This document shows, piece by piece, positions 1 to 64,000 of a stretch of 64,000 nt of DNA; the stretch's first letter is position 1; every line of letters starts with the position of its first letter. A program made the translations under genes and the position numbers. Below the pieces are notes generated by a model that saw nothing but the letters and a program-made list of their open reading frames with translations, was not told the origin of the DNA and ran no database searches. Source of the stretch: Asterochloris sp. CNOR1 (taxonomy: Eukaryota; Chlorophyta; Trebouxiophyceae; Trebouxiales; Trebouxiaceae); NCBI GenBank assembly GCA_963969365.1, contig OZ017756.1:2542001-2606000 (forward strand), read 5' to 3'.

Positions 1-3000
1 TGATCCCATGCCCAGCATGCAAAGCTGCTGTCAGGGGTGTCTGACACCAGCGGACACCAGCAGTGCTGATGCCCATTGGGGCCCACGCAGCTGTGGCTGT
101 CAGGAGAGAACGAAGCCTGGCCTCACCCGTACATCGAACATGACCTTGACGTTGTGTGCAAAGTTGCCCACATGCTGGCAGGCAGGATCGATGTAGTCCC
201 TCGGTGGGAAGGCGTAGGCGTGGGCCAGAGCAGCCAGGAACATCTCCACACAGATGAGCCAGCTCTGAAGCCAGGCTGCGCGGTCGCCGTCGCCCCACTG
301 CACCAGCGCCAGCCACAATGTGAGTGATGGAGATGGAGAACATGCCTGCACGGTTGGACCAGCTCTGGAGCCAGTCTGCGCGGCCCTAGGTGCTTGAGAT
401 AGAGCAGCGGGGGCTAGAACTGCTCTGAGCCCACTGGTCACAAATCATGTCAGCACTCAGTAGTCCAGAAAAACAGCAAGCACTGCGAACCCATCAACAT
501 CACATTGCAAGAGCCAGCCCAACTATTGGGGTAGGCATCCCAAAGGGTAGGTCCACGTGCCCTAGCCTCTGACTGTCAGACGAAGTGCCCGCCCAGGGCC
601 AAGAAGCCATGCCCACCTCTTTTGGCGCTGCGTTCCACAGCAGCCTTTAGCACAGCGTGATGGCCAGCAGGTACTCTCCCTAGAGAATAGGCAGCTGAGG
701 CAGCTGCATGATGGCTGGCCACAGCATTCAGGCCTGTGACTGCGAGGGCAGCTGGCCTCACCTCTATGGGTCTCACACTGCAGCCCACAGCCTCTGCAGG
801 ATGCAAGAAACAGCTGCACAGGTAACTGAGGCAGCCACGCAACTTGATGGCCACAGCAACAAGGCCTGTGCCTGTCACAGCAGCCGGAGTCACCTCCTTG
901 GGCTTCACTGCAGGCAGCAGCCTCTCCAGGACATCAAAGCCCAACACCTTGGGCGAGAGGTAGGTCACCAGGGCCAGCGCGACTGACTGCCAGAAGGTCG
1001 CAAAGATGACGGCCTTGACTATCAGGAACTTGCTCAGGGGCCGGATGGGCTTCAGCTCATTGTGAGTGCCCTGCAGGTGGCCACTCCCTTTGCATGCTGT
1101 ACAATTTATTGCGTGCCTCCGGCAATGGCCTTGTGGTGTAGCACCGTCAGGAGTCAAGCTGAAGCAGAACAAGCAGGACTGCTACCTCAATGGCAGGTGG
1201 ACAGCCTCCAGCAGGAGCAGGCGCCAGCTCACAAGCACTCCACCAGATGCCTTCACGGCAGACAGCCACACAGCAGGCAGCTGGGACTAGAAGGGGGTCC
1301 CCGCCTCACCTTGAACATGAGGACCAAGCAGTAGAGAGCCCAGGAGGCAGAGATCATGTTGATGGTGACTAAGTAGGGGTATGCCGCCCTGCAGACATGT
1401 CAGAAGTTACACGGACAGCTTTGTCATCATCTCAAAGCAGCATTGTGGCTGTGTCCTACGAGCATATCAAGCACAGTGGCCATGATCTGGCAGATAACTG
1501 TTGCTTTCAGCAAAGTTCTTCCAAACAGGGTGCAAGGAATATAGCATGCACATGTGGACGCAGCAAAAGCCTGGCCGGACACCGGTGCAGGTCAAGCACA
1601 CAAGCAGACATAGCTTGCCACACCCCCCAACCCCTCACTCAAGGTGTGAGGTTGTGCAGAAGACAGACTGCAGCGGTGCAGCTCACATAGTGTTAATTGG
1701 AACAGCCTGTAAAATGGCGAAGTGCAGACCAGCAAGCTGCAAGCTGCAGGCTAAGAGGGGCATATCACGCGATCAGCGCAGGCTTCTGCACACAGAAAGC
1801 TGCATTACTCCCTGGGCCCGCCACGGCCAGTCAGGGGAGCAAGTCTGCAATGTGGGCAAGAACCTGCCTGCTGTCATCGTGGTGAGTCCTTTGGTCGCAC
1901 AAGTAGATGACAAAGCGGATGAATGTGATGAGGGGCTGCAAGATGACGTAGTTCAGAATGCCCTTCTTGCACTGCCAGAAAAAGTCGATGCCCATGTGCC
2001 ACTGCCTGCAGCACAAGAGTGCAATGGTGCAGCTTGCTGTCTGGGAATTAAAGCAGCTTGATGACTGGGGTCCTCCTACGCAACGAGATTGTGTCTGGCT
2101 CACATTGGCAAACTGGCAACAGCCCAAGGCACTCCTGCAGGGCATGCGTTTCTGGTGGCAAGGCTTCAATACCAGCCTGCAGTCAAGCTGCTAGGCCCAG
2201 CGTGCAGTATGCAGAGTCAACAACAAATTGCCCTTGACCTGACAGTCTGCAACATCCTGTTGACTGCTGCAGTAGGTCTCAGTGGCCCTTCACAAGTGCC
2301 AGCTTCTGACAGATTCTTGCCTGCCACACGTCACAGCTTGGCGCAGGACACAGCACCCTCTACCTGGAGGTTTGCCTGGATGAGTGGCTCCCAGGCCTCA
2401 TAAGCGGCCCGTCCTGCTTGCTGCAGCAGGACTTGCTTGCTGCTGAAGCAGGCATTAGTAGCCAATGCCCTGTCATTGGCTACTGCTGGGGCAAGGCACA
2501 AACCAAAAACCCCATGAACATGTGAGTCTTCCCCAGACATGGCACTGTGGGCGAGAGGTGAGTCACTTCCTGTATGCTGCTGAACCACACCTCAAAATCC
2601 CTGCCCTGCCAGCTGCTGCCTGCTGCTGCTGGAGCAAGTCAATCCCCAACCTGAAGAGACCCAAGTCTTCCTTACCTGCAGACATAGTTCATGGGCCACA
2701 GGTGGGAGACGTCTTGCTTGCTGCTGAAGTAGGCATCGATGTCTCCGTACTCATCCTCCAGGTAGGCCAGCAGGAACATGAAGAAGTTGTAAATGACAAA
2801 GGCCTCATAGCACTCGCGGATAGCATCAAAGTAGTCGTGCTGACCCTGCAGGCACAGGGAAGATAGCAGGATTTGGCATTCCTATAGAGCGCAGATGCTT
2901 GTAGAGAGTCCCCCTAACAACACAGAAGCATGGGGGCTGCAATGTGCGGCACGCGGACAGGGAGCAGAAGCTGGCCTGAACAGCAGCAGCAACAACAACA

Positions 3001-10091: not shown

Positions 10092-13000
10092 ATGATGGTG
10101 CCAAAGCATAGTGGCAAGCCCATGCTTGTCATCGTTTCGGTTATGGCAATGGCCAGCCTGTGCCTATCAGGCAGGCTGAGATGGGCAGTCCTGGGCTGGT
10201 CTGCAGTAGAGTTTTTCTGGTTCCTGATTCAGCTGTTGCGGTAAGCCTCACATCAAGCTGTGAACTAGAGTGCTGCAGAGCTGTGCAGCACCTGTGCGGA
10301 GCAAGGCAGCTGAAGTGCCGCCCGGATATTCATCACATGCACAGGCTCTGCTGCAAGTCCTGCCAGCACAACAGCCCGCAGCCTGGTGTGGTGCCTGCAG
10401 ATACAGTATATGCAACCAGCCAGTTGAGCCTCAGGATCCCTCCCCTGGCCATGTGCGCAAGGTGCAGGCACGGTTTCTTGAGCTGCACAAGGTGTTGGAC
10501 ATCAAGGTTAGAGCCCAGCTGCTCTGCTTCACGACCACCATGGTCATGCCAGGCTGGCCATGCATGCAAAGGAAAGACACCGTGCTGCAGGAGTTTCTGT
10601 CAGGCTGGTTCCTGGGAGCGCCGTTTGAGAGCATTCGGAGGGGCAATGTGCTCGCCTTCACGGCCTATGCCTTCTACGGGCGCTCCCTGCAGCAGCTGCC
10701 GCTGCAGGTGGGGCCACCATTTCTGCATGTCTGTCACAACGCTCCTCCAAGACAGAGTGCATGCTGCATGCTCAGCTCTTCAGTTTGCACTGTGCCTTCA
10801 TTCGTCCGCTCGGCTGGTGCTGCGCCAGCAGCTCACTTTGTTCTGCAGGAAGTCCAGCATCTGCAGGAGGGTATGGCTCGTGCGGAGCAGCTGTGGGGCA
10901 CCAAGCTGTTGCCTGGATTCAACCCTGATGTTAAGGTGTGCAGCTGGCACATGTGACCGATCCTCTGTGTGCATTCGAGCCATGCTCGGCACTGTATCAG
11001 CCTGGGTATTGTGAGGAGCCAGCGTTGCAGACCACTGTGAGTTTCCAGATGCTTGGCACACAGAGAGCATCCAGGCTCCTGCTCTCAGCATTGTGCAATC
11101 GCTGCTTCCAGGACAACAGGCTTCTCTGGAAGCTGCAGCCTGGCAGCATGGGCAGAGCGATGATAATTTATTGCTGCCATGTGCACAACTGCCATCCTGC
11201 GAGTGTTGCTGTCTGCAGAGATGCCTGCATTGCTGCCTGTACTCTATTGGGCACCTGCGGGAGCCCCTGCAGCTCATTGTGTGTGCTGTCACCATCAGAG
11301 CCAGCGTCATTGCCGGTGTTGTCACCATCAGAGCTGCCTGTGTGGCCCCCTGCGGTTCATGGCGCACCTGTGGGAGCCCCTGTGTTGCTGCCTGTAGATC
11401 ATTGGGCACCTTTGGAAGCCCCTGCAGGTGGTGCTGCCAGCGTCGTCGCCGATGTTGCCACCAGCAAAGCTGCCTGTGTCTCTGCATGCAGGCCATGTGC
11501 CATTTATGGCGCACCTGTGGAAGCCCCTTTTAGAGCTGCCTGCATCTGTGCCTGCACTGCTCGCCGCACCTGTGAGAGGCCCTACGAAGCTGCCTGTGTC
11601 TCTGCCTGCAGTTCATGGCACACCTGTGGGAGCCCCTGCGGGTGGTGCACAAGCCCCTGGCAGTCCACCTGGTCAGCGAGGCATGGGGGTTGGTGACCCA
11701 CGGCATCCTTCTTTGGATGGGCTTCTCCCATGGCTCTCATAAAGTGAGGTGGCAGGCCTGCTGCACCTGATAGGCTTTTCTTGAGGGGTTCATCCCATGT
11801 GCAGGCTTGCACTGCATTTGACAGGCACGACATCTAAATCACTGAAATGCATCAGTAAACCTGTGGATGGCGGCTACCAAAGCAGGTGTGCCTCAGCACC
11901 AGCTTGACTAAGACACAGGTGAGCAGTGCAGCGTGCTGAGCATTGACCTCAAGACACTGCCTGCGTTGTGTCCCGACTGCTTCTGTAGTGTGAGAATGCT
12001 CGCTGCAGAGCATCTCGTGTTGAAAACGGCCCTCCCAGCACTGCTTTCCTTTTCAGTTTGCGCTGGTGCTCTGCTTGCAGGGCATCTCGTATTGGATACG
12101 CTCCCCCAGCTCTGGGTTCCTGGATGTGTGGCCCAGTGGAGGTGCTAATCCGGGACCCCAGCTGCGTCCCATTGTTTTTGCGCATGGCGTTGGCCTTGGC
12201 CTGGTGGGTGAAGCGCTCCTCACTCTGGACCCACCAATGGCACACTGCTCATGCAGCGTGCACATGCTCTGCAGGGGTGCGTGCTTGAAGCCCCTGCTGA
12301 CTGCACACAGACCGTGCTGCTGCCAGCCAGACAGCTGCTACCTGACCCCCTGCCCTTCTCAGGTTTCCCAAGCTGCATTGCTGACCAGCAGCCTCGATGA
12401 TCGCGCATCGTAGCACGCTTCCATATTGATCCGTTCTGGCTCCGCTGGAAACTCATGCAGGCTAGCCACAGCCTCAACCATCTGCTGCCGCCAGCTCGGC
12501 ATCTTCTGCATGCCAGCACTGGCTGAGACCAGCACCCCATGCTGATCACCCAACCCCTCTCCTTCCTGCCCCCAAACCGGCACAGCCTGTTCCCTGCACT
12601 TCGGTGCTGTGGCATCTGGTCTATGCGCTGTTGCGGTTACCATGTGATCAAAACGCTTTGACCTAGGCAGCTCTGCCTCGGTCGGCCCCCTCTGTCAACC
12701 AGTACTGTGCTGCCGCTCTGCACTGAGCTGACCATGTCCAAGCCCATCAGCCAGCGCTTCGCTGCCACGTGCACAGCTCTGCACTGAGCTGGCCCAGCCT
12801 TTCACCCCGGCAGCCGGTGCTATGTTGTTGTTTCTGCAGTTCTTTCTGCAGCTTTGTCCTCAGCTGATCACGCCCCAGCCTGCCACGCAGTCTCAAGGTG
12901 GCAACTCTGCCCTGAGCTGAATGCCCCCCCAGCCTTCCAGCCAATGCCCTGCTGCCACGTGTGCAGTCCCCCTACATCCACTTCATCGCCCTCCTGGTGC

Positions 13001-15023: not shown

Positions 15024-15034
15024 TGAGGACTGCA

Positions 15035-22100: not shown

Positions 22101-25100
22101 TAGCAGCATCATGTATTGAGCTGGGATGAATTCAATGTCTGCATTGCTGGGCCCCTTGCAAAGTGGGACTCTGCTGCACAGATAGGCCCAGGGCGTTGTC
22201 AAATGCAGCTGTCAAGGTTTGCCAGCAATGCAGATCACTCCTCTCAGCTGGGGTGTTGGGCCTTTGTAGGGCCGATGCACTGGAGGTGGAGCATCTGAAG
22301 GAACGGCTGGACAGGCTGTCAGGCCTGGTGTGGTCAGTGGCAACTGTTGCTGGTCGTGCCGAGACAGTCGAGAAGGAGGAGGTTAATGAAAAGTGAGTCA
22401 CTGTGATCCCTTTGCTGCAGTCTTGCTCAGACACCTGAGGGCTGCGTGACTGATCAAGTTGCTGTGATGGCGCCTTGCAGGGCTGCACTGGGTGGGAATC
22501 TCTCCCTTGTGTCTCTGCTGCTGCACAAAACCCCTACAGGATATGCTGCTGCATGAAGACCTTATACAGCTATTCCCTGCTGCGCTGCGCCATTGGTGCT
22601 ACCTCCAATCAAAGGGCTAGCTGTGCTTTGAGCTTCAACCCCGGGAATAGTATAAGCATCCGTGACTACTGTGTGCTGGGGCAACAGAGCTGCAGCACAG
22701 GGACACGTGCTGCACATCAGCCAAAATTGGTGTTGAGAGGCATCCTCATCAATGCAGGGTAGCAGGGAGAGGTGGCAAGGGCCAGGTCCAATGCACCACT
22801 GCTGTTGAGCCTGATGTGTTTTGACTGCAGACACTTGACCTTTGGGCTAAAGCCCATCAAGGGTCTGCAGTGCTGCTTACATCACTTGCCTGATCTCTGC
22901 TTCGTAGCCTGTTTCTGCAACAGAACAACCCCTGCCAGGCTCCGCAGATCCCGTAGCTGAATGAGCCCCTGAAGAGCTGCAGGGCAGTGCTGCCAGCCTC
23001 GTACCAACCTGCAGACCTTCATGGCATTGAATCACTTACTGCAGGGTGGAGGAGCTTTCAGTGTGGCACGCCGAGCACAAGAAGGTTGTGGACTGTGTCC
23101 AAGAGCAGGGCTGGGATTCGACACTGCAGCAGCAGGCGGTGGAGAGCTTTGAGCTGCGTCGCGACCTGGAGGCGGCCAGGTGGGGCCCTGTGCCTTCTCT
23201 CTCGCAGGCTTGAACGCTGCAGCTACATGGCCAGGGCCTCCAGCAACTGATGTGCTCTCTTTTCAGGCTTCCCATATGCGCTTTGAGCAGGACCCTGTCA
23301 GGCACCAGCCTTAAGAATGGGGATGCTTGCAGAGCCCCTCCTTTGCAAGCGACCACATTCCGTTAGCATCAGCATGGCACCCGATAGTGGCTGCTTCTGG
23401 CACCAGCATGCCAACTCTTGACGCTGCGACGCTGACGTGAAAGGTCTATGTGTGCCTCTGACTCTGAGCTGCGCTGCAGAGACATGCCTGTGTGGAGGTG
23501 CTTTGGCTTGGCTGCCTCTTGGCTGCTGGCAACTCTATGTGTACAGTGGTGAGGGTGCACCAGCGCTGTGGAGCACCAGCTGCCCTGAATGTCTGCAAGC
23601 TGACTGCTTGTGGCTGCACCACCTGCCCCTTTTAGCAAGGCGGGGCAACGTTCGCCATCCACCTCGCTGCAGGGCTGCTGTGACAAGGCTGCGGCACCCA
23701 TCTCTTCTGACAGGCTGACAACGTCTGCCATGCATCTGGCTGCAGGACTGCTGTGGTCGTGGCGGCAGCACCTCTCTTTCTTTGCAGGCGGGGCCATGTC
23801 TGCTTTTCACCTGGCTGCAGGACTGCTGTGACGATGCTGCGGTGGGAACATGCCCAGCTGCGAGCAGCCCTGGGCAAGCAGGGGTTCTGGGGTGCTGTGG
23901 CAGAGCTGGACGCACCAGCAGAGGGGGACGACGCTGGCAGGCAGTCGGTATCGGCGGCAACGTCACAGGAGGAACTGATTGGCTCAGAAGGCATTGCCAA
24001 GCAGACCAATCAGAGCGCGCTGTCCTCCAGGTGCATTGCATGTATGTGGCTGCCTGAGCAGACTGCGGCAACACAGTGTTGTCACATCTCTCCGTCAGAT
24101 AGGCGGTCAGCTCGTACTGGGACCGCCTTTCCCTCCCATGTGCTGCCTCTTTGGGAACCCTAGAGCAAGCAGTAATGTGTGAGTGTCCTTCTGACTGCAA
24201 TGAGATAATGTTGGGGCCGCCTACCATCTGCAACCGTGGCCTGTTGGGGACGTCCTTGAGCATGCAGACAGCCTGTGACTGGCAAGCTTGCTGGCCGTGC
24301 TCGTGCCAGTCCAGCAGTGTGCTGTGGGCTTCCTTGCCCATTGCACAGCAGCACGTCGACGGTCACCCGCACCTCTCAGCCCAGGCCAGTCTGATGTTTG
24401 CCCAGCTACAGTGCTTGCTGGGGTAGGACTCCTGCAAGGCGCTGCACCCCTGCACATTCATCGATGAATTCATCCTTGGGTGGATGATACCCATCAGTCC
24501 ATCAGCAGCGCCAGGCACAACTGTCTTGCGAGATCACCGCTGCCCGAGTCGCTGGGGCTGTTCTGCCGTGCAGGGGTCCCACTGTTCAGCCCGGCTGGGC
24601 AGAGCGCATCTCGCGGTTGCTGGAGAGCATCGTGGGGTGGCCGGGCCCCGTGCACCTGAATCTTGGGGATGAGCTGCTGCCTGGGGGGCTGGCACGCGCT
24701 GCTGGCGATGTGGGGGTACAGGTGGGTAGAGCAGAGGGCACAGCTTTGCAGGACAGAGTCTGGGTGTGGTGACTGGGCCTGTCCCACCTGCTCAGTGCAG
24801 GCAGCAGGATATGTCACTGCAGGACAGCTGTATCTTTAGACTCCCACACCAAAAAATGGGGTGCTGTGGGCATAGTGGGCTCAGCAGGAGTTGCCACAGC
24901 TAGATCAAGCAGCCTCCTCTGCTTTCACTGCTTTCACTGCAAACACATCATCCTCCCCCACAATATAAGGACTCTGTGCAGCGCCACATGTGTAATGTTG
25001 GCAGCGGCACGCAGCGCCTCCAAGGCGTCCCGGACCTGGCTCAGCCCTGCTTGAAGAGAAGATGCCAGCCCTGTGCTGCTGCCTCAGCAAGCATTCTACT

Positions 25101-49899: not shown

Positions 49900-50439
49900 G
49901 AGAGGTCAACATACACTGGCCTGCACATCATTCCACGATCTGGAGTGCTGTGATATCTGAAGGAAGTCTCAGGATGCTGCGCTGTATAATATGTGTCCTT
50001 GCCTTGCCCCCCACAAGACATAGAACATTGTCAAAGTTTTGGTGCCAGCCTGATGACACCTGCTGCAGTGCGGGGGTCAGCCCTAGCTGGCATTCTGTAT
50101 GTTGCAGACACTAGAAATTCCAGTAGCGAAAGGCTTCTGATGAAGATGTCTGTGCTTTGCATTACTGGGTCACCTTAGCTGAGGGCCAGAGTACCACATT
50201 TGGGCCTGTACATACGCAAGTTCGGCTTATACACCCAAATGCAGTGCAAGTCTGTAATGCTAGCATGACGGAAAGTAATTATCAAGCTTTGGCTTTCTTG
50301 CCATGTGCCCCATCAGATTTGGCTTCAATGTCTTGGATTTGAACTCAAGGATCGTTGCAAGAGCAACGTTGAAGAGAGACAATAATCACTGAGCGCCCCA
50401 GGCTTCCATCAAAGCACAGCAAGGCAACATTCAGGCCAG
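49900..50439. promoter_or_regulatory. Intergenic region with UBA2 promoter
   Basis: The part from about 50285 to the UBA2 start is conserved in the duplicate at 43760-43910, so it was copied with the gene and likely includes the core promoter. I see no gene in 49900-50280. Confidence 0.5.
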
Positions 50440-53400
50440 ATGGCGGTGCAGAAGCCGTCCTGGCCTGCAGCTGCCTCTTCCCAGGGTTTGGCGGAAAAGG
50501 CAGGCACAATCATGCCTTTGTCTGGAGTCCTCTGCTCCTAACTTGGGGCATCAAACTTGATCTGGATTTCAATGTGCAGCTCCCATGCTTTATCAGAGGC
50601 AGCAGTAACACACCACCTCATACTTGCTGCAGGTCAAAGCTGCAAAGGTGCTGTGCGTGGGGGCTGGCGGCATTGGATGTGAGCTGCTGAAGACCCTGGT
50701 TCTCACGGGCTTTCAGCACATTCAAGTAGTGAGCCATGGGCCCAACTTGCACGGAGCAGTGGGGCTGCAGCACAAGGGACAGGCATGCTTTTCAGGAGCC
50801 TGGCAGTCAGGCTGGCTTGCCTCCAGCTACCCCTCACTGCTTCCTCCTGATGACTGCCAGAATCCAGGCCACCCAAGCGTGCAACCTCAAGCTGCCATTG
50901 TTCCACCACCCTTCAGCAATCTTACAGTGCCCTGTGCTGGCTCTGGGAGGTGCACAGCCAGCTCAGCTGCTTTTGTGGGTCCCTTGCATTCCCTTCCGCA
51001 CCTCACACCTCTGCCTGGCTGCCTGCAGTGGGCATGAATAGTGTCAAGACTATGTTATACAGCGTGAACATCAGTGACACCAGCGTGCTAAAGGGGACCA
51101 GCTTGTTTCTAACATCACCTGCAGCCCCCTCACACTCCTGCCTGCCTGCAGGTGAGCTTGGATCACAATTAAAGCCAGCAACTCAAGTAGCACTGCCCTT
51201 CACACTTCACACAGTGGCTGCCTACCTGCCTGCAGACGGGTAGGGACGATGTAGAGACCAGCGACCCTGCATGCCGCTGTCCCTCCAAGCCTGCTGCACC
51301 TCAGACTGCCTGCCTGCAGACTGACATGAGCACCATTGAGACCAGCGCCTGGACCGGGGTTGCCCTTTACATCACCGGTGGCTGCACATTGCCGCATATT
51401 GACATGGCCTCCACAGAGACCAGCGATCTTTCATGCCTCTATGCCTTCCAGCCTGCAGTACTCACACTGCCTGCCTGCAGATCGACATGGACACCATCGA
51501 GACCAGCAACCTGAACCGGCAGTTCCTGTTCCGCAAGCGCCATGTGGGCGAGAGCAAGGCCAAAGTGGCGGCCGAGGCAGTCAAGCGCTTCCGGCCCAAC
51601 GCCAGCATCATGGCGCATCAGGTCCGATGGTGCATCTGGAGAGGCGCATCTTCTGAGGCGGGCTTATGGTGTGGCTCTTCTGTGGTGACAGCCTAGTGAT
51701 CCCTGCGCGGCGCCAGCATCAAGGCGCATCAGGTTTGATGGCGCATCTGGAGAGGCACAGTCCTGAGGCAGACTTATGGTGTGGCTCTTTTGAGATGACG
51801 GTCTCATAATCCATGGGCGACACCAGCATCATGGCGCATGTCAGTCATCGCATCGAGGTTCTCAGGGAGCCAGCTGCTGTCTACAGCTGTTGGTGCTGGC
51901 GGTGGGCACTTCTGGCACAAAACCACCGTCATGGTGCACCGCAAATGGAGCTGGTGGAAGCTGCTTTCTCAGGCAGCCACGGGGACTCTGTGGTGGCACT
52001 GTGGAACAACATGCAGCATGCAAAGAGGTGTGGTTTTAGTCAAGTGCATCCGCTCTCTGATTGGAGACATGCCAGATCCTGGATTCAGCAGCAACACTGC
52101 CAGTTTACAAGCTATTTTTCTGCCGGCAGGGCACATGAAGGAGTTTGAAAAAGTGGTCTGCTTCAGGGTCCTCTGATGCTGGTGCCAATCCCCTGCCATG
52201 CAGCAGTGTACCCATGCGCCCTATGTATGTCTGCAGGGCAATGTGAAGGAGACGCAGTACGACGTGGACTTCTTCCGGGGCTTTGACCTGGTGCTGAACG
52301 GGCTGGACAACCTGGAGGCACGGCGCCATGTCAACAGGCTGTGCCTGGCAGCTGAGACCCCTCTGGTGGAATCCGGGACAACAGGGTACCTGGGGCAGGT
52401 GGGCTCCCAAGCCTCCACATGCCTGTGACATGTGATGGGTGTGGCAAGCGGCTGCCAGGCCGGGCAACATGAAGCCGGGCATGAGTCTGCATCAAAGCGG
52501 GTCTGCGGCAAAGCGGCGCCGCTGGTGGGCTGAGAGACAACAGGGTTCCTGGGGCGGGTGAGCTCTGCAGCAACTGAGCCTGGTGGAACCCTGCCCACCT
52601 TAGGCTGCTCTGGCTTGTTGGAGAAGATGACTCTTTGCCGGTGGGATCAGGCGCCCTGGAGCATGGCGGCCTTGCAGCCAGAAATGAGGAACACAAAGTG
52701 ATGTGCGCTCAGGACTGCCTTGTGCCTGGCAGGTGCAACACCTCCTACAAGAAAGAGACCAGACCTGTAGGTAGCCTGGGAGAATATAATGTTAACCTCC
52801 GCAGCAAACTTGGCTGGCATCTGGGCTGCCCTTTGAGAGCATCGCCAGTCGCTAGTGTCGCCGTCTTACCATCATGCCGGGGCTTGCTGCTGCCTCTGCG
52901 CCCGGTGGGCCTTTCTGACCACAGTGTGCCAGCAATGCTGCGTGCAGCAGGAATCTTGCCGTCCAGCAGTGCTGACCACAACCACTTTCTGCAGCCGCCT
53001 GTGTGTGGCTCTCTTGCATGTCTTCCAAGCCAAAGCGGGGCTGGTGTGTCTGAGGTCTGTCATATAGCCTGCTTCATGCCAGTGGCAAGGCCTGCTGCTT
53101 CAGGCAACCTCTGTGCTGCCTAGGGTGTGAAGCCATTCTCTCTTTCTGCCCGCAGGCCAGCGTGCACATCAAGGGCCAGACAGAGTGCTTTGAGTGCAAG
53201 CCAAAGCCGGTGCCTAAGAGCTTCCCCGTGTGCACCATCCGCAACACGCCGGACAAGCCCATCCACTGCATTGTCTGGGCCAAGGAGCTGCTCTTCCAGA
53301 GGCTTTTCGGCAGGTCTGCATGGCTGCTGGCTGCTGACTGCACCAGCTGCTTGAGAGTGCTGCTGGATGGCCGTGACAAGCCGCAGTGCTTTATTTGGCA

Positions 53401-56400
53401 AAGGAAATGCTACTGCAAACACAGAGGAACCAAGCTACTGCCCAGAAGGCAGCTGAGCCAGGTAAGCATTGTGCATTGTCTGGGCCAAGGAGCTGCTGTA
53501 GCGTAGGCAGGCCAGCCCAGCGTTAGCTGCTGCTCTGCATTGTGATTGGCAGGCCGTGGAATCTGCCTGCTGCATTGTCCAAGGCAGGGAGCTGCCTTTC
53601 CAGCGAGTAGGTGGGCAAACCTGCACTGCATGCTGATTGGTATGCATCAAAGGCTGCGTGCTGCATTGTGTGAGCTGAGGAGCTGCCATTGCAAAGGCAG
53701 ATGTGTCCAGCTGCAGGTGCTGCACAGCATGCTGGCTGGTAGGCAGCTGAGGTTGTGGTGCTGCACCTTATGGCAAAGGGTCGGCTGGTTGAAGGGTCAG
53801 AGGGTAGGGCTGTGGCCCTGCTGTGGCAGCTTGTTGTGCTGCCCTCAGCTGCTGTTCTGGCTGTTGTACAGACATGTCTCTGAAAGATATGTACTGCCCA
53901 TGATGGCCACAAAGGCCCCTGCTGGTGTCTCCCTCGGCGTGGGCTCGACACACTGCGCTGTGTGGGCTGGAAAAGCTGTTCCAGAGACACTGGCACTGCC
54001 ACGCCTTGCTAGACAGCATTGCGTGATGCTGACTTGAGTCATCTGCCCACTAGCGGACAGCCTTGCCAGGAATTTTCAGCCTATCCCGCAGGGCCGACAG
54101 CATCACAGACCTGGATGAGGGCGCAGCCCCTCAAGACCCCCTTGAGGGGCCTGCGGCTGCCAGTAGCAACCCCAGCACTGTAGAAGCGCAGAAGGCTGAG
54201 GCAGAGGACCCCTCCGTCTTCCTGAGGCAAGAAGGGGAGGAGCCAGAGACATACGCCCGGCGCATCTTCAGGCGCGTGTACCATGATGACATTCAGCGAG
54301 TGCTCAGCATGGAGGTGAGAAGCTGGAAGGATTTGGTCCAGTCTCCCTGAAATGGTGATGCCATCCAGGCTGTCAATGCTGTCTGGCTGTCTGACAGCCA
54401 TGTTTGCCAGCAGCTTTGGACGCAGCCGAGTGCTGCCTGCAGGAGTTATGGAAGACGCGCAGCCGGCCAAAAGCGCTGGACGTGGACGCAATCGTGCCAT
54501 GTACCAGCCAGCGGGCCAATGGTCTGGCGGGGGGTCACGTGCCTGAGGCTGGTGTGCAGCCCAGCGCCTGCCGCTCCCTGGGATTGTCAGACCAGCACAA
54601 GCAGTGGAGCCTGGAGGAGAACACCAAGGTGGGGGCGAGCCAGGGTGGTGGGTTGGGCAGGTGCAGGGACAGTGGCAGTAGTGTCTGGTTGCAGCAGAGT
54701 AACAGCCATGCTGCACAATGCTGCCCCTGCCGCTTGCCCGGCTTGTTGGACCAGCACAAGCCTAGAATGGTGGTGGTGCACTGTCTTCGAGTGAGGGTGG
54801 CAGGGCGTTGAACTCATGGCAGCCCCCTAGCAAGGTGAGGGCTGGCTCAACATCTGTGGGCAGCTGAGTGGGGATCATACCTCATCACAGCTGCAAAGCA
54901 GATGGCCAGAGCTGGCTTGGCAGTCCCTGTCTGAGAGCAAGGGTGGCATTGTCTGCCAGTGCATCACCTGGCTGGCTTACAGTGGAAGCACTGCGGCCGA
55001 GAGGACAGTGCATATCATCAGAGCATCTGCTGGCTTATTGAGCCTCCCAGCAGCAACATAGGCCTGGAGCACAGCCTGGCAAGGTTGATGATGTGCATGG
55101 CTGACTTTCTCCCCCTTCTGGGCCCCTGCAGGTGTTCATCGAGAGCATCCGCCTGTTTGTGGAGCAGCGCAGCAGCGACATAGGCGCAGCAGTGTTTGAC
55201 AAGGACGACGACCTGGCGGTGGAGTTTGTGGCAGCAGCCTCCAACCTGAGGTCACTGGCCTATGGAATCCCTACGCAGGCACTGTTTGATGCCAAGGTGG
55301 GCGCTTGCAGCTGCAGCAGTGACTGTTTGCAGAGCATGATGCATGATGCATGCTGATGCAGAGCATGTTGCATGCTGCAGCTGTGACTTTATTTGCAGCT
55401 GCAGCATGCAAAGTGCACAAACAGTGGTATGTTAACCCTCAGCTGTTTTGCAATGATCTGTGCAGCATGCTCCAACCTGGGGCCCATCTTTAGGTTCTGA
55501 GAGCAGCAAAATTTCATAGCTGCTACAACTGCATCAGCCTGGTTTGGCGCCAAAGCAAGCGGCTGCAGGGTGTGGCGTAGGCTCTGGGCTACAATCCGAG
55601 CACAATCTGTGCATGACTTAGCCCCTGACTGGTGAACACCATGCTGTCATGCTTGCAGGGCATGGCCGGCAACATCATCCACGCCATTGCGACCACCAAC
55701 GCCGTGATCTCTGGCTTCATCGTCATTGAGGCGCTGAAGCTGCTGGCGGGGGTGCCTGAGGCTTGCAAGGCGCGCCGCTCTGCAACCTAAGGGCTGCTGT
55801 GCCGCTCGCTGGCCTGGTGCTTGAGGGTGCAGCAGCTGTCGCGTCTGCAGGCCTTCCGCTGAAATGAAACCTTGCTCCCATTGCAGCAATGTCTGGCCCT
55901 GCAACCTCGTCAATTATTTCTTTCTCTTCCTGCTGCTCTGGAGGCCCCCGGTTCATACTCCTCCTGCTGCAGGGATGAGACTGGCCTGCAAGCCGTCTGT
56001 CGCGCCTGGCTTTGCCCTGGTACTGCCCTGCCTGCAGATCACCTTCCTGGTACCCTGCCTGCAGACCTTTGTCCTGATGCAGCATCTGAGCACAAGCGCT
56101 GCACCACCGGCCCAGCTTGACAACGCCCCAGCTGACAGCCTGGCGCCCCCTGCCCTGCCTGCAGACCACTGCTTGGGTGCAGCGCCCGGTGGGAGGCGCA
56201 AGGCATACCCTGCTCCCTTTCATGCACGCAGTCGTCTCTGGTGATGCCTGACAGCGGCCCAGCTGAAAACCTGCTGCTCTTTGCCCTGCCTGCAGACCAC
56301 CTTCCTTGTACAGCGCCCGGTGGGGATGCGGATGCTGGTCCAGGCTCTCGCAACAGAGAAGCCCAACCCCAGCTGCATGGTCTGCGGGACGGCCCAGCTG

Positions 56401-59194
56401 CAGCTGCAGATCAACACCACCAGCACGACCCTGGCGCAGTTCATTAACAAGGTGCGCAGTGCAGGCCAGCAGGCAGTCCTCAGGCTGTGCAAAAGCCTTT
56501 GGTGAGGCTCTTTCTCTGAAGCTCAAGGGCTGCCTGCCACAGTGTATTCAGACAGTATGTTGGTGTACTGTCGACCCCTGCGGCACTACTGAGACGCAAC
56601 AGTGGCAAGCAGGTGTGCAGACCCTGGCTCTGCACCTAAACACATACATGTTCCCATGAGGACTGCCAGACGTCACCTGCCAGATGTTGCGGCCATGCTG
56701 TGACAAGATGTCGTGCCTCTGCAGAGCGCAGTCCATGTCCTCCACACTCCACCCCAGTTTGTGTGCCACTCAAGCTTGTGCTCGGCGCAGCTTGTCGTTA
56801 CAGCATGCTAGCACTGAAGCAGCGCCAAGCCGTCCACAAACCTCTCCATCATGAGCCATACTGCCGCCTGGAATGTATCACAGCCCCATAACCTGTCCAG
56901 CATGTCCCTGCTCAGCAGTTCTGGTCCCAGCAGGTGTCGAAGCAGCGCTTGTCAGTGCGCGTGCCCTCCACCATGTGCAGCTCACCCTTACACCTCAACA
57001 TCTGGCATCTCTGCCGCCAACAACCTTGCTACTTTCCAGCTTGCTGTCCCACAGGTTCTCAAGCAGCTGTTGTCAGTGCATGTGCCCTCTTTCATGTGCA
57101 CCTGAATGCTGGCCCTCAAGAACCACCTTCCGGCATGTCTGCAGCCAGCGTCCTTGCTACTTTCCAACTTGCTGCCCTACAGGTGCTGAAGCAGCGGCTG
57201 TCAGTGCATGAGCCCTCCATCATGTGTGGAGAGTTCATGTATGAGGAAGGGGAGGGCTTGGAGGACGATGAGGTGGCAGAGAACACCGCCCACCTCAACA
57301 AGCGGCTGGAGGCGCTGCCAGGTATGGGGCAGGGCGTTTCAAGAGCAACGCCTGGCAGTTTCCACAGCTGTGGCTGCAGTAGTTTGCAGGGATTGCAGGG
57401 CGGACACATCAGCCATGCCAGGTCATGTGGTGTCGCTGTCAGTACTTAGGTGGTCTGGTGGTACATGCGAGCTCACTGTGGCAAGCCGCTGCAGGTGCTG
57501 CGGGGTGAGACAGTGGTGTGCTGCCAGTGTTTGAGTCCCTGGCAATGTGTGTGAGGCAGAACTGGGCAGAGCATGCAGTTCACCTCAGCAAGCCACTGCA
57601 GACAATCCAAAAGGCCTCCTGGGTGGCAGTGGGCACCGCAGCTACAGTGCTGTGGCAAGCTGTGGGATGTTGCGTGGCTTGTGCCAAGCCAGGGCTCCGT
57701 AGCAGTTGCCGCCCACACTGTGAGCCGCTGCAGGCGCTGCCAAGTGGAGCAGGTAGCGTACTGGGTTTCGTGTAGTGATGACACGCCAATAAAGGTGCAT
57801 GCTCATGTTGGACCCGAGGCATCCATCAGCGGTGGGCTGCACTGCAGCTCCCAGTAATGGCGGCATTTGGTGGCGGGCCAGGGTCTTGCACAGCAGGCTG
57901 CATGTGCAACAACGCCGAGCTGGCGTGCACCTTTCGAGGGTGCTGCTCAGACCTGCCACCTCAGTGATGACCTGCACACCAGGCATGCGATTGCTCCTGC
58001 TTCCATGGTCCAGTGCACTGCCAAGGCATGAGGTGCCTGGTATGCTGCTGCAGGCGGCGGCATCACCAACGGGTCCATCCTGCAGGTCGATGACCAGGCG
58101 CAGCACTTCAAGGTCCAGATAGTGGTGACGCACAAGGTGACCTCCCCGCAGCAATGGCTGCTTGTTGTGCGGCAATGGCACTGCTGCAGACTTTTAGAGG
58201 CACCCTGCCTGCCCTGTGGGGTTGCCTACAGTGCAACTTCTCCCTGCAGGGAGCATCTGGTCATGCTGTGTGACTCATTGGCAGGAACGCATTGCAGACA
58301 GCTTCGTGAGCAATGTGGGCAGCCATGGCTGCTCACATGATGGCTGGTCACATGAGGCACTGCTGGACGCTGATCTCTCCTGCAGGGCCCATTCCTGTGT
58401 CGTACTGCAGGGCTGCATGTGACGAGCCCCACTGCATTCTGCATTGTCTTGAGTGTGCTGCTGCAGATGCTGCGCACCGTCCTGCTGCTCTGCTCCCTGT
58501 CAGGACCTCACTGCATGAAGCCCGATCCGCATCGCCAGCGACCCTTGCTTGGGTTGGGCTTGCTACAAGCTGCCCCAGAAGCGCTGCAGAGGCCATGCCA
58601 GTCGCACGCAGCACCCAAACCAAATGTTGCAGGATGACTTTGAGGAGGAGCAGTGCCCTGAAGGGTTCACGCTGCAAGGCGCCGTCCCAGAGGCCACGCA
58701 GGCTGCACCAGAGGATCCCAGCAAGCCTGGGGCTTCCACTGGTGAGCTGTTGTAGTCATACACAGGAGCCCAATCCAATTCGCGCTCGCAGGCCCATCTA
58801 CAGTAACTGCAAGTTACTTTGGCCCTGTCATGCTGCTCTGCTCTGACATGAAACGCATGGGCAACCGCCTGCTAAGCCCCACGGCATGACAAGCTGCAAT
58901 TTGTGCATGTGTTGCGGTCAGTGTCATGCTGTTGTGGACTCATCATGGTAGCACTTGCACCTGGCCCTGAGATGCCATGACAATGGCCTGCCTGCTGCAG
59001 GCCAGCATCTCATGCCAAGGGCAGATAGTGGCGATTTAATGATTGTGGAGGATGGTGCTAAGCAACAGCATGTGATGGAGGCCGCAAACGCACACACTAA
59101 TGGGAAGGGAAAACGCAAGGCTGAGGCACCTGCAGAGGAGGTGTCTGGCAAGCGTCAGAAAGAGATGGAAGCAGCGCCAATTGAACTCGATTGA
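50440..59194 (+). CDS. UBA2: SUMO-activating enzyme subunit 2 (E1 catalytic subunit)
   Basis: Adenylates SUMO and carries it as a thioester before transfer to UBC9; works as a dimer with SAE1. Fourteen exons: 50440-50499, 50633-50728, 51481-51621, 52237-52398, 53156-53313, 54092-54314, 54443-54628, 55132-55296, 55659-55769, 56296-56451, 57183-57321, 58054-58136, 58633-58741 and 59001-59194, 660 aa, near the family norm. Seen in order: GAGGIG (30-35), [25 protein letters not shown], zinc pair CFEC (164/167), catalytic Cys179 in [38 protein letters not shown], zinc pair CMVC (461/464), the ubiquitin-like domain (GSILQVDD), an acidic DLMIVED and basic [10 protein letters not shown], a likely nuclear signal. 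Exon 1 is supported by the parallel copy at 43911. Introns 1 and 9 are GC-AG. Most introns carry exon echoes. Confidence 0.96.
51226..51437. repeat. Three upstream echoes of UBA2 exon 3
   Basis: The real exon 3 starts CTGCAG/ATCGACATGGACACC at 51475 and continues CATCGAGACCAGCAAC. Decayed copies of CTGCAG...GAGACCAGCG lie at 51230-51273, 51313-51354 and 51393-51430, spaced about 80 bases. Confidence 0.88.
51598..51850. repeat. Tandem repeat across the UBA2 exon 3 donor
   Basis: The unit GCCAGCATCATGGCGCATCA (exon 3 end, 51601) plus intron start is copied at about 51711 and, partly, at 51823. Units 1 and 2 also share TGGAGAGGC and CTTATGGTGTGGCTCTT. The period is about 110 bases. The donor in use, GTCCGA, is non-ideal. 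Confidence 0.9.
52528..52600. repeat. Echo of UBA2 exon 4 end and donor
   Basis: GACAACAGGGTTCCTGGGGC followed by GGGTGAGC at 52536-52563 mirrors GACAACAGGGTACCTGGGGC followed by AGGTGGGC at the exon 4 donor (52377-52404). Confidence 0.88.
53466..53708. repeat. Three downstream echoes of UBA2 exon 5
   Basis: The exon 5 end (GCATTGTCTGGGCCAAGGAG, CTGCTCTTCCAGAGG, CGGCAG) is mirrored at 53473-53507 (nearly exact), 53570-53612 (GCATTGTCCAAGGCAGGGAG, CTGCCTTTCCAGCGAGTAGG) and 53661-53703 (GCATTGTGTGAGCTGAGGAG, CTGCCATTGCAAAGGCAG). The period is about 95 bases and similarity falls with distance. Confidence 0.88.
54726..54772. repeat. Echo of UBA2 exon 7 end
   Basis: CTGCCGCTTGCCCGGCTTGT then TGGACCAGCACAAGC mirrors CTGCCGCTCCCTGGGATTGT then CAGACCAGCACAAGC in exon 7 (54568-54602). 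It lies about 160 bases downstream in the intron. Confidence 0.8.
55010..55086. repeat. Echo of UBA2 exon 8 start
   Basis: ATCATCAGAGCATCTGCTGG...CAGCAGCAACATAGGC...GGCAAGG mirrors the exon start TTCATCGAGAGCATCCGCCT...CGCAGCAGCGACATAGGC...GACAAGG (55135-55204), about 123 bases upstream of it. Confidence 0.85.
56020..56200. repeat. Three upstream echoes of UBA2 exon 10
   Basis: The acceptor and start CCCTGCCTGCAG/ACCACCTTCCTTGTACAG (56284-56313) have copies at 56026 (followed by ATCACCTTCCTGGTAC), 56052 (ACCTTTGTCCTGATGCAG) and 56153 (ACCACTGCTTGGGTGCAGCG, then CCCGGTGGGAGGCG). The last copy extends more than 40 bases into the exon. Confidence 0.85.
56925..57182. repeat. Two upstream echoes of UBA2 exon 11
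   Basis: The real acceptor and exon start ACAG/GTGCTGAAGCAGCGGCTGTC (57179) have copies GCAG/GTGTCGAAGCAGCGCTTGTC (56931) and ACAG/GTTCTCAAGCAGCTGTTGTC (57053), each continuing AGTGC(G/A)(C/T)GTGCCCTC. The spacings are 122 and 126 bases. CTTGCTACTTTCCA(G/A)CTTGCTG intron blocks are repeated too. Confidence 0.92.
57480..57760. repeat. Three downstream echoes of UBA2 exon 11
   Basis: The exon end (CACCTCAACAAGCGGCTGGA, GGCGCTGCCAGGTATGG) is mirrored at 57481-57510 (AAGCCGCTGCAGGTGCTGCG, GGGTGAG), 57580-57606 (CACCTCAGCAAGCCACTGCA) and 57720-57755 (GAGCCGCTGCAGGCGCTGCC, then AAGTGGAGCAGGTAG), about 120 bases apart. Confidence 0.82.
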
Positions 59195-60883: not shown

Positions 60884-63800
60884 ATGGACAACGGCAACGG
60901 AAAGCCCCCTGAGGTCAGCACCTGCTCCACCTGGCCACACATTCCATGTGCACACACATTCCATGCAGGCTGGAGCAGAGTAGCTGACCCTTGTGGTGCC
61001 ATGGCACGTGTCCCTGCATCACGGCACCTGCTGCTTCGCATCCCCATCAGGCCACTCCTCGTGGCGCAGGAGAACCCCAGATGCACCCCGAAGGACCTCT
61101 GCTGCACCTCAACAGCCCTGCATTGCTGTGCAAGGGATGGGAGGGGCCCCAGTAGCTGTCCCAAGCGTGTGGACTGGCAGCAGGATCGCTGTGCTCAGCT
61201 CAGAAACCCACCGCGGCCTTCCACTGATCTCACTGCCCTCCCCTGTGTTTCCAGGGGGCCCACCCCTGCAGCTGCCCATAAGCACCTGGACACGCCGCGT
61301 CTGGCAGTGTGGCGCGCACAATGCCTGCTCACAGCTCAGACAGCTTTCACTACCGCCAGTGCCCTTCCCCTGCATCGGGGGACCTACCCCTGCAGCTGCC
61401 CAAGCGCTGGGAAACACCACATCTGGCAGTGTAGCTCGCATGATGCCCGCTCACAGCTCAGACGGCTGTTCACTGACGTCAGGCACTGTCCACCCCTGCA
61501 GCTGCCCAAGCACCTGGGCACCCCACATCTGGCAGTGTGGCGCACACGATGCCTGCTCAGACCTCAGGCAGCTTTGCACTGACATGGGTGTCCTTTCCTG
61601 TGCAGGGCGGCCTACCCCTGCAGCTGCCCAAGCACCTGGACACGCCTGAGGAGCTGGAGCCCCTGAAGGAGGCACTGCACCGTGCACATCGTCGGGTTCA
61701 GTCCTCGGCGCAGATCAGGGAGGACCTTGAAGGGGAGGTCAGTCGCCACCACCTGCATGCATGTCGGCATGGAGACTTGTGCCGCTGCCTGCACACCCTG
61801 CGGCGCTGCATTCTTGGGGCCTGGTATCACAGAGGCGCCAACAGGGAAGTAAGTAATGTGCAGGTGTGCCACAGCCTGTCTCTACAAACGAGGCGTTTGG
61901 GAAACGCTATGAACAGCGTCAAAGCCTCCAGAGACGACATTTGCACAGGGAGCCCACACTGCCTCCGCCGCCTTGCCACATGCACCACTGTAATGGCGTT
62001 TCGTGTAACTGCCTCCTTCAGCAGCAGCAGGAGCCTGTGGGGGCTGCTGCCACCCTAATGGTCATCTTGCCCCAGAGGCGCAGCCTGGCACCGGTGCTAC
62101 CCCTGCGGTGTCTGCTTGACCCACTGCTGCCTCCCCCTGCAGGCCCAGAAGGTGGCTCAGCTGGCCATCAACGCCCGCGAAGCTCATGTGAAGGCCCGGG
62201 CCCGAGTAGACCAGGCGGTCGCTGACATGGAGTCCGCTGAGATTGTGAAGCAGAAGCTGCTCAAGGACCTCCAGGAGCTGCGGGGACAGCAGGAGAAGCT
62301 GCTGCTGGAGGAGGCCAAGGTGCTGACCTGAGGAGATGTGTGGTGGGATGCTGGCCAGCACCTCAGCCTTGCAAAGCTGGGCAAACCGCTACCTGAATGA
62401 ATGAGGCAGCTTGCTGTTGGTGCAGCAGATGTATGTGTCTGTTGCTCTCAACTGCAGCCTTGTGGACATGATGGCTGCTGCCTACCAAATGGTGCTGCAG
62501 TCTGCTGGCGGTGTACGTGTGCACGTACACCTTCCACTCCCTTGCGCTACATTGCACCGCACGGAAGACGCTGTTAGGCTTGGCCATGATGCAGGTTTAG
62601 GCTGACAGCAAGATTTGAGGCGAAAGGGAGCAGGAGACAGGCCTTGCACAGGATGTGGTAGGCTCCGGACCTGGACAGCCATGCTGCACTGCAGGTGGAC
62701 GCCAGCAGCAAGAGGAGGCATTCATACAGGCCCCAGCTGAGATGCTGTACCTGCAGGACCTGGCTGTAGGCAGAGGTACAGGCCTCTACAGAGGAACTAC
62801 CTGAGACGCTGGACCTGAAAGGCCTGGCTGCGCTACAGGTGGAGGCCAGCAGCAGGGAGAAGGCATCTGCACAGGACTTGGCTCAGACTGTGGACCTGGC
62901 GGCCTCTGAGGGGGAGGACCTGGCTGCCATGCTGGCCAAGAAGGAGCAGGACCTGCAGAGGGTCATAGCAACCCTACAGGAGCTGAGCGTGAAGGTCAGC
63001 TTGGGGTCGCCATCTGCAGCAAGAGTGGCAGCATCAGGGCCACCTGCAGGCTATGACACTGCACAGAAACATTATACGTGCTGCATGCTCATGGCTTGTC
63101 TGCCCACCCTGAGCCTGTTTGCGCTGCGCCGTCCTGCGTGTGTTGTTTGCACCCCGCCTGTACTGCTGCTGGCAGTCTAAGCTGTCTGCTCCCAGCAAAC
63201 AATTTGTCTCCTCGTATTTCCTGCAGTGCGAGGCGCTGGAGGAGCGCGCCCAGGCCGCTGACAACTCGGCCGCTTCAGCAGAGGAGGTGGCATCGGCAGC
63301 CATGCGCTCGGCTGAGAGCGCTGTGCGTGAAGAGATGGAGGTGAGGCCTTGCTATGAAGGGAGCTGCTGGAGCAGTGCAGTAGTGGGGGGCCACCTGGAG
63401 AGCAGCTTGTTTTTATGCCTGATGGAAGCCATGCAGCCTCAAGTGTGCCGCAGGACGGTCATGGAGCTGCCTTGCACTCGACTGAGATCGCTGTTGGCAG
63501 GCATTGGTGCAGGACCTTGCCATGAAGGGAGATGCTGAAGCAGTGCAGCCTCTGCCATGGGTTGAGTGAAGCAGTGTGTCTTCTCGGGGCATCCTGCTGC
63601 TTCTAGTCAGGTGAAGCATGCCTGCTGTGGCAGTTTCCTGATCTGCTGACAGCATGCTTTATAGCATCTTGAGAGTCTGCAAGGTGGAATGTTGCTATCC
63701 TCACCAGCTTGGTTCAGCCCAGCCATCAGCGCAGGATCTGCTGGCCGTCTGTCCATGCTGGTAGCCTAGGAGGTGCAGGGGTTGTACCCACTCAGGAGGA

Positions 63801-64000
63801 AAACACCTGTCCCGCAGGCCTCTGCATGGCCAAGGAGAGCGGCCTCAGCTTGACAAAAGGTTCGGCTGTGCAATGTCACACATAAGCCCCAGCAGTCCTC
63901 TGCCAAGGCTATCGAACGGCAGTCGGGTCCACCGTGACAAAGTCCAGGCCACTGCACAACGTCAATCAACAGGCTCCTCCTGACCCCTGTGCAGGCCTCT
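60884..64000 (+). CDS. Coiled-coil protein, 3' part outside window
   Basis: I do not recognise the family. Exons supported by phase: 61606-61737, 62143-62319, 62839-62994 and 63227-63340, all phase 0; 63995 is a likely acceptor of a further exon cut by the window end. The encoded stretches (LEPLKEALHRAHRRVQSSAQ, KLLKDLQELRGQQEKLLLEE, KKEQDLQRVIATLQELSVK, ERAQAADNSAASAEEVASAA) are Ala/Glu/Lys/Leu-rich heptads, a long coiled coil. A possible first exon is 60884-60913 (MDNGNGKPPE); it ends in GAG/GTCAGC, the same unusual GTCAG(C/T) donor that exons at 61737 and 62994 use. That start is tentative. The role may be structural (filament, vesicle tether or cytoskeleton), but this is only what coiled coils often do. 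Confidence 0.6.
61255..61605. repeat. Three echoes of the first large coiled-coil exon
   Basis: The exon start CCCCTGCAGCTGCCCAAGCA (61615) has copies at 61263, 61387 and 61493 (spacings 124, 106, 122). Each continues with CACCTGG/CGCTGGGA, ACACC or GCACC, and then a shared intron block TCTGGCAGTGT(G/A)GC, GCCTGCTCA and CAGCT(C)CAG. This makes long but spurious open frames across 60809-61649. Confidence 0.92.
62690..62838. repeat. Echo of the coiled-coil exon at 62839
   Basis: CAG/GTGGACGCCAGCAGCAAGAG at 62692 mirrors CAG/GTGGAGGCCAGCAGCAGGGA at 62836, and GAGGCATTCATACAGGCC mirrors GAAGGCATCTGCACAGGAC. The spacing is about 144 bases. The copy is frame-broken. Confidence 0.85.

What the first reader, a model, noticed from the sequence alone, without database searches (positions are those of the whole stretch)
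1..64000. Exon echoes: splice-junction-spanning tandem duplications in nearly every gene
In eight of the intron-bearing genes here the introns hold decayed, same-strand copies of the neighbouring exon edge. Upstream copies include the acceptor and exon start; downstream copies include the exon end and donor. Spacing clusters at about 75-160 bases and similarity usually falls with distance. Established models of intron growth invoke transposons or introner elements; these copies are local, gene-specific and unrelated between genes, so the simplest reading is repeated small tandem duplication centred on splice junctions. The result is introns full of decoy splice sites and pseudo-exons. I do not know of a description of this as a genome-wide mode in algae.
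Basis: partly seen in the sequence, partly recalled or inferred. Interest (0 to 1): 0.92.

Follow-up and report, generated by a model that had tools for sequence, protein, structure and literature searches.

The report
Tandem-duplicated exon edges inside introns
In this alga about one intron in five carries a decayed copy of the neighbouring exon's edge, most likely left by ordinary small tandem duplications that are tolerated because splicing can still make the same message, so introns grow and gain spare splice sites.

Summary
In the window plus 190 kb sampled from the same genome (217 introns in self-trained gene models), 199 local same-strand repeat pairs were found against 1 at distant offsets and 4-5 in shuffles. 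Of these, 71 join an exon edge to its own intron, at 47 of 434 junctions in 45 of 217 introns. Polarity is strict: 43 upstream copies carry the exon's 5' half, 28 downstream copies its 3' half, none the reverse. That is tandem-duplication geometry, not introners or scattered capture.

Duplication is not shown to be centred on junctions: pairs also lie inside introns (58) and in intergenic DNA (36). Uniform placement can reproduce the junction excess if the copies are old, because coding constraint keeps one copy recognisable, though only 10 of 59 matched draws did so; fitted junction bias 1.4-fold (0.7-2.2). Echoes occur in 22 of 40 multi-exon models, not nearly all, and similarity does not fall with distance (11 v 10). 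Best reading: intron growth by ordinary tandem duplication plus survivorship.

The parts
338..383 (-). acceptor-side echo of exon 127-297 (real 238-283), LAZ1/TMEM184-like gene
   Evidence: offset 100, 78% identity
689..801 (-). donor echo of exon 894-1070 (real 820-931)
   Evidence: offset 131, 74%, score 69; GT kept
2432..2455 (-). short donor-side echo of exon 2676-2845 (real 2713-2736)
   Evidence: offset 281, 96% over 24 bases
11219..11586 (+). five acceptor echoes of exon 11612-11743 (offsets 55, 109, 214, 256, 369), alpha/beta-hydrolase-type gene
   Evidence: 75-88% identity; AG kept in 1 of the 5
23610..23755 (+). two acceptor echoes of exon 23821-24030 (offsets 73 and 149)
   Evidence: 76% and 78%; AG kept in both
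34954..35008 (-). acceptor-side echo of exon 34673-34864, asparaginyl-tRNA-synthetase-type gene
   Evidence: offset 149, 80%; AG not kept
36238..36492 (-). two acceptor echoes of exon 35955-36165 (offsets 162 and 314)
   Evidence: 74% (score 132) and 78% (score 87); AG kept in the nearer
37984..38035 (-). acceptor echo of exon 37527-37790
   Evidence: offset 216, 77%; AG kept
38456..38492 (-). acceptor echo of exon 38256-38405
   Evidence: offset 76, 81%; AG kept
51138..51424 (+). three acceptor echoes of UBA2 exon 51481-51621 (offsets 82, 162, 329)
   Evidence: offset 162 has 81% over 106 columns
51711..51839 (+). donor echoes of UBA2 exon 51481-51621 (offsets 111 and 221)
   Evidence: offset 111, 82%, score 142; donor GT kept in that copy, not in the other
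52519..52565 (+). donor echo of UBA2 exon 52237-52398
   Evidence: offset 159, 81%; GT kept
53472..53698 (+). three donor-side echoes of UBA2 exon 53156-53313 (offsets 205, 304, 395)
   Evidence: 26 of 26 identical in the nearest, 79% in the others
54723..54761 (+). donor-side echo of UBA2 exon 54443-54628
   Evidence: offset 159, 79%
55015..55063 (+). acceptor-side echo of UBA2 exon 55132-55296
   Evidence: offset 121, 78%; AG not kept
56024..56193 (+). two acceptor echoes of UBA2 exon 56296-56451 (offsets 131 and 258)
   Evidence: 80% and 93%; AG kept in both
56924..57098 (+). acceptor echoes of UBA2 exon 57183-57321 (offsets 122 and 249)
   Evidence: 77% (score 122) and 83%; AG kept in both
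61252..61418 (+). acceptor echoes of exon 61606-61737 (offsets 230 and 351)
   Evidence: 81% (score 149) and 91%; AG kept in the farther only
62667..62721 (+). acceptor echo of exon 62839-62994
   Evidence: offset 144, 80%; AG kept
63466..63548 (+). donor echo of exon 63227-63340; lies beyond the last predicted exon, so not among the 71 intronic pairs
   Evidence: offset 170, 78%

Best explanation
Small tandem duplications, of the order of 100 bases, fall all over this genome. Inside exons most are removed by selection. If the unit spans an acceptor, the gene becomes intron-[x y][x y]-exon: splicing at the exon-proximal acceptor still gives the old message, and the outer exon-edge copy is left in the intron. 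At a donor the mirror image holds. Such duplications are nearly neutral, lengthen the intron and leave a decoy site. The real copy stays under coding constraint while the echo drifts, so junction-spanning duplications remain recognisable longer than intron-intron ones; that survivorship makes them look centred on junctions. Shown: excess, polarity, intronic and intergenic counterparts, codon-position signature, and that uniform placement can suffice in simulation for old copies. Inferred: neutrality, exon-proximal splicing in the cell, purging inside exons, a decline of duplication in the recent past, and the enzymology (replication slippage or microhomology-type repair).
For: Polarity 71 of 71, while the wrong-edge search gives 0 at score 34 or more in 215 introns each way (1 and 0 at score 30). 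No inverted hits at score 34 or more. Comparable pairs inside introns (33 merged loci, 0.30 per kb) and in intergenic DNA (21 loci, 0.21 per kb, ankyrin-like array left out), and fewer inside exons (5 loci in 43 kb). Exon parts of the 79 exon/non-exon pairs are 84.5% identical at codon positions 1+2 but 77.8% at position 3, so one copy evolves as coding sequence. AG kept in 26 of 41 and GT/GC in 13 of 20, close to the square of about 0.80 expected for drift. One nearly complete junction unit is seen: L009 exon 7093, unit 119, 121 columns, 88%. Simulation: uniform placement with a quiet recent period and frequent indels gives junction:interior ratios of 1.34, 1.21 and 1.69 (observed 71:58 = 1.22) with identity quantiles within 0.02 of the observed. 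With junction bias free, the best of 291 runs has bias 0.89 and the best 25 have median 1.38, 10-90% 0.69-2.23. Introns with an echo are longer, median 587 against 348, p = 1.4e-6 (confounded, since long introns also have more room).
Against: Uniform placement does not reach the observed ratio easily. With few indels it gave 0.40-0.94 in 15 of 16 runs, quiet period or not, and 1.56 in one; over random settings with a matching number of intron pairs only 10 of 59 reached 1.2; and the three well-matching runs have fewer pairs than observed (18-36 interior, 30-44 junction, against 58 and 71). The second-best run has bias 1.86. Copies reach less deep into the exon than most simulations predict: median 34, 90th percentile 55, against 41-47 and 83-84 with units near 100 (KS p 0.05 and 0.002 on independent junctions); units near 75 fit depth (p = 0.69) but give too short offsets. 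Aligned length is often a small part of the offset (median 0.26), and in some cases, such as L018 exon 2112, no homology is seen in the intronic part of the unit beyond the acceptor motif, so abutting duplication is not visible in each case.
Confidence: 0.7

Rival explanations
1. Junction-targeted duplication: transcription or co-transcriptional splicing (R-loops, nucleosome-marked exon edges, CTGCAG-like microhomology) makes duplications start preferentially at exon edges.
For: Raw junction:interior ratio 71:58 is above the 0.27-0.93 (5th-95th percentile) of 55 simulations with a quiet time under 0.06, and only 10 of 59 matched uniform draws reach 1.2; shallow exon depth; fitted bias median 1.38, up to 2.2 at the 90th percentile.
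Against: Intergenic and intron-interior pairs are common. Simulations that also match identity and alignment length do not need a bias (best fit 0.89).
Confidence: 0.19
2. Repair-mediated capture of nearby DNA: patches of 20-60 bases are copied into breaks in the neighbouring intron (synthesis-dependent strand annealing or polymerase-theta-type templated insertion), without tandem geometry.
For: Short patches with non-homologous spacers in several cases; aligned length median 0.26 of the offset. In vertebrates, proximal duplications averaging 162 bases within 5 kb are described (PMC2671141, passages read).
Against: Capture should also put exon 5' edges into the downstream intron and 3' edges upstream, and give inverted copies: wrong-edge hits 0 of 215 in each direction and inverted hits 0 of 215 on each side at score 34.
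Confidence: 0.06
3. Echoes are functional alternative exons or regulatory decoys kept by selection.
For: 19 of 40 acceptor echoes keep AG with a score above the 10th percentile of real acceptors.
Against: AG and GT retention is what drift predicts. Such sites also occur elsewhere in introns at 0.32 per 100 bases; 27 of 40 echoes would meet a stop if used, 17 of 40 keep the frame and 6 of 40 keep it without a stop. Offsets leave remainders 0, 1, 2 on division by three in 30, 24 and 25 of 79 pairs (no formal test).
Confidence: 0.03
4. Chance similarity from the CTGCAG/GCTGC-rich composition, or assembly artefact.
For: The sequence is rich in such words.
Against: Controls are near zero; copies are diverged and codon-patterned.
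Confidence: 0.01

Closest known systems
Tandem genomic duplication and intron gain (Rogers 1989 and Hellsten 2011 as cited in PMC4974935; that paper and PMC2891723 read in passages only)
   Same: A short tandem duplication in or at an exon can leave the message unchanged because splicing removes the extra copy. In PMC4974935 the duplicated segment is itself an intron-exon piece, and the authors mention in passing a second, 83-base tandem duplication inside an intron that did not change the gene structure.
   Different: There a new intron is made. Here existing introns are lengthened: none of 208 introns tested shows its donor region matching its own acceptor region at score 24 or more.
Repair-mediated proximal duplication in vertebrates, and the 'doublets' of Thomas et al. 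cited there (PMC2671141, passages read)
   Same: Local duplications about 150 bases long within a few kb, occasionally copying splice sites (4 partial exon/intron donors in the table for its 824 cases).
   Different: Copies within 50 bases of their source were filtered out there to exclude tandem duplication, and an opposite-orientation exon copy is reported. Here inverted and wrong-edge copies are absent at score 34.
Introners / transposon-driven introns (PMC9860276; title and start of abstract seen in the listing only)
   Same: Another route by which intron DNA grows.
   Different: Introners are families spread over many genes. The echoes are gene-specific and none of the 11 cross-stretch repeats found involves the window.

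Membership tests
Small tandem duplication | Same-strand copies at short distance, far above chance | tested here: met
   199 pairs against 1 at distant offsets and 4-5 in shuffles
Small tandem duplication | Order of copies as in [x y][x y]: acceptor edge copied upstream only, donor edge downstream only | tested here: met
   71 of 71
Small tandem duplication | Copies abut, so homology length equals the offset | tested here: inconclusive
   True for a few (L009 exon 7093, L014, L020); median aligned length is 0.26 of the offset in exon-intron pairs, which simulations give only for old copies
[quoted passage not shown]
   0 of 208 at score 24 or more; shuffled partners 1.3 per set
Introner elements | Similar sequence in introns of unrelated genes | tested here: not met
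   Exon against other introns 0 at score 34 or more; no cross-stretch hit from the window at E 1e-10. Only 254 kb of 56 Mb was compared
Repair-mediated proximal capture | Either orientation and either side of the source | tested here: not met
   Inverted 0, wrong edge 0 at score 34 or more
Functional alternative splice sites | Use in RNA and conservation between species | not testable with these tools
   No RNA data or related genome to hand; the protein database was switched off

The most novel reading that the evidence does not exclude
The lineage went through a past episode of small tandem duplication with a real preference for exon edges (up to about twofold, mostly reaching only 20-60 bases into the exon), perhaps tied to transcription or to nucleosomes on exons. 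Junction-spanning duplication would then be a distinct, directional motor of intron growth that leaves decoy splice sites beside about a fifth of introns and forces the spliceosome to choose the exon-proximal site.
Probability: 0.19. Interest if true: 0.8.

Novelty: new variant of a known kind. Interest (0 to 1): 0.52.

Why it matters
Where intron DNA comes from is an old question, often answered with transposons. Here sequence from a single genome points to a second source at scale: ordinary duplications made near-neutral by splicing and kept legible by coding constraint. It supplies a natural experiment on splice-site choice: 19 of 40 acceptor echoes tested are intact, good-scoring acceptors some 55-590 bases from the one presumed to be used, so RNA data could directly measure how often the wrong one is taken and how selection silences it. 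It also warns that gene finders can be misled by pseudo-exon edges.

Tried and rejected
Rejected readings: introners or transposons, chance composition, assembly artefact (divergence and codon pattern), new-intron creation, scattered templated insertion (polarity). A steady-rate duplication model fits badly: 34% of exon-intron pairs at 90% identity or more, against 10% observed. Simulations with units of about 55-110 bases and few indels gave junction:interior ratios mostly of 0.4-0.94 and too long aligned parts, so indels and settings were varied. The fits are coarse approximate Bayesian searches (285 and 291 runs, one replicate each) with assumed substitution, indel and deletion rates. In one search the unit length and indel rate hardly moved from their priors; only the quiet time (0.09-0.20 substitutions per site in the best 25) and, more weakly, the bias were informed. 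The 'quiet period' is therefore an inference. I first read intron and intergenic pairs as equally dense; 14 of 50 intergenic pairs lie in an ankyrin-like open frame and were dropped. At checking I added the 10-of-59 result and the ratios, which speak against my reading, and for that lowered the best explanation from 0.75 to 0.70 and raised targeting and the novel case to 0.19. Literature: six searches bear on the echoes (three others, 26, 45 and 53, on the organism, GC-AG introns and mutation rates) in the open-licence PMC set. I saw listings, partly capped (25 of 58, 20 of 2198, 20 of 70, 15 of 118, 8 of 8, 5 of 5), and passages of three papers; none listed described junction-spanning echoes genome-wide. 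Subscription papers are not covered.

Full report
Material. The window is contig 11, bases 2542001-2606000, of a 56.4-Mb genome in 21 contigs. Contig 21 carries psbA/psbD-type genes, so the organism is photosynthetic. Counts below are for the window plus these 190 kb unless said otherwise.

Gene models. A semi-Markov gene finder was written, seeded with 12 exons of OLA1 and UBA2 and self-trained. It gives 261 exons (67 in the window); 217 introns follow, median length 422. Of 8 multi-exon window models, 6 were scanned against Pfam and all 6 match: Solute_trans_a, YchF/OLA1, alpha/beta hydrolase, class II tRNA synthetase with OB fold, thioredoxin, ThiF/UBA2. The UBA2 part of its model aligns with SUMO-activating enzyme subunit 2 chains over query residues 59-616; at the joins before exons 52237, 53156, 54443, 55132, 56296 and 57183 the printed alignment shows no insertion of echo length, while 18 extra residues before exon 51481 reflect a wrong donor call. 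The models are approximate: one fuses neighbouring genes.

The observation. Exons were compared with their own flanking introns with splice motifs trimmed: 16 of 215 on the acceptor side and 13 of 215 on the donor side reach score 34, against 0 for reverse complements and 0 for other introns; at score 30 it is 18 and 18 against 1 and 1 inverted. A search for local direct pairs at offsets 25-824 that does not use gene models gives 199 pairs at score 32, against 1 at offsets 4000-4799; shuffles give 4-5 and 100 kb of E. coli gives 4. Offsets peak between 60 and 160. By class the pairs are 58 within one intron, 50 intergenic, 79 exon-with-non-exon, 8 exon-exon and 4 mixed. 71 of the 79 have the copy in an intron, at 47 junctions, in 45 of 217 introns (27 acceptors, 20 donors). 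At score 40 there are still 50 pairs at 39 junctions.

Polarity. All 43 upstream copies carry the exon's 5' half and all 28 downstream copies its 3' half. A separate test of wrong edges finds 0 at score 34 in 215 introns each way, 1 and 0 at score 30, and, for exons of 150 bases or more at score 32, 1 of 99 and 0 of 89. Tandem duplication, [x y] to [x y][x y], predicts this, because the outer copy falls into the intron; local capture into breaks does not.

State of the copies. Exon parts of the 79 pairs are 84.5% identical at codon positions 1+2 and 77.8% at position 3 (2907 sites): one partner evolves as coding DNA. Echo acceptors keep AG in 26 of 41 and echo donors GT/GC in 13 of 20, about what drift gives at 80% identity. 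19 of 40 acceptor echoes score above the 10th percentile of real acceptors (such sites occur elsewhere in introns at 0.32 per 100 bases); using the echo would meet a stop in 27 of 40 and be frame-neutral without a stop in 6 of 40. Introns with echoes are longer (587 against 348, p = 1.4e-6), though long introns also offer more room. Only 3 of 199 pairs are near-complete and at least 90% identical. The best-preserved junction case is L009 exon 7093, unit 119, homologous from -56 to +64.

Is it centred on junctions? Merged loci are 0.30 per kb inside introns and 0.21 per kb in intergenic DNA after dropping 14 pairs in an ankyrin-like frame. I simulated genes under uniformly placed duplications, rejecting those inside exons and accepting junction-spanning ones. 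With a steady rate the junction:interior ratio is about 0.4-0.65 and identities are too high. A quiet recent period with few indels gives mostly 0.44-0.94, once 1.56. With a quiet period and frequent small indels three chosen settings give 1.34, 1.21 and 1.69 (observed 1.22), with identity quantiles within 0.02 of the observed but fewer pairs in total. Over random settings with 35-90 interior pairs, 10 of 59 uniform runs reach 1.2. With the junction bias free, the best 25 of 291 runs give a median of 1.38 (10-90%: 0.69-2.23) and a quiet time of 0.09-0.20 substitutions per site. So targeting is not needed if the copies are old; up to about twofold is not excluded. What remains unexplained is the shallow depth into the exon (median 34, 90th percentile 55) and cases such as L018 exon 2112 where the intronic part shows no homology beyond the acceptor motif.

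Comparison. Passages read in PMC4974935 and PMC2891723 describe tandem duplication that creates introns; none of 208 introns tested here shows that signature. Passages of PMC2671141 describe proximal repair-mediated duplications in vertebrates that sometimes copy splice sites. The process here is therefore a known kind of mutation; the strict edge polarity, its frequency (a fifth of introns) and its reading as a near-neutral, constraint-preserved record of intron growth are what seem new in the listings and passages I could see.

Verdict. Observation confirmed and extended beyond the window; mechanism partly as proposed (small tandem duplication), while the focus on junctions is best explained by selection and survivorship, with moderate targeting not excluded.

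Noticed in passing
window 43760-44343 and 50286-50891: A 607-column, 80% identical direct copy of the UBA2 5' region (first conserved exon and surroundings) lies 6.5 kb upstream, next to the thioredoxin gene; it looks like a decayed partial gene copy.
   Followed up: partly
window 5212, 9147; 31 of 217 predicted introns: GC-AG introns look unusually common (31 of 217 predicted); two in OLA1 fit conserved protein joins (comparison recalled, not run), at least one other is a likely mis-call.
   Followed up: partly
window 15840-17060: Ankyrin-like open frame (name recalled from its look, not searched) with an 81-base array of about five copies, missed by the gene finder and removed from intergenic counts.
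   Followed up: partly
L008 7057-8264 and 8793-10000; L002, L008, L014, L015: A perfect 1.2-kb inverted repeat in L008, which explains the inverted signal at long distance; the four stretches share long similar dispersed sequence, probably mobile elements.
   Followed up: partly
sample stretches L002-L020: At spacings under 60 bases inverted matches equal or exceed direct ones in the sample (lower threshold), suggesting many short hairpins.
   Followed up: no
whole window: CTGCAG is the commonest six-base word (243 in 64 kb); it also resembles the acceptor consensus.
   Followed up: no
L003, L019, window OLA1 gene: Some gene-rich stretches have no echoes (0 of 14 and 0 of 20 introns, and OLA1 none) while others have nearly half (L010, L020 5 of 11); heterogeneity p = 0.016, cause unknown.
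   Followed up: partly
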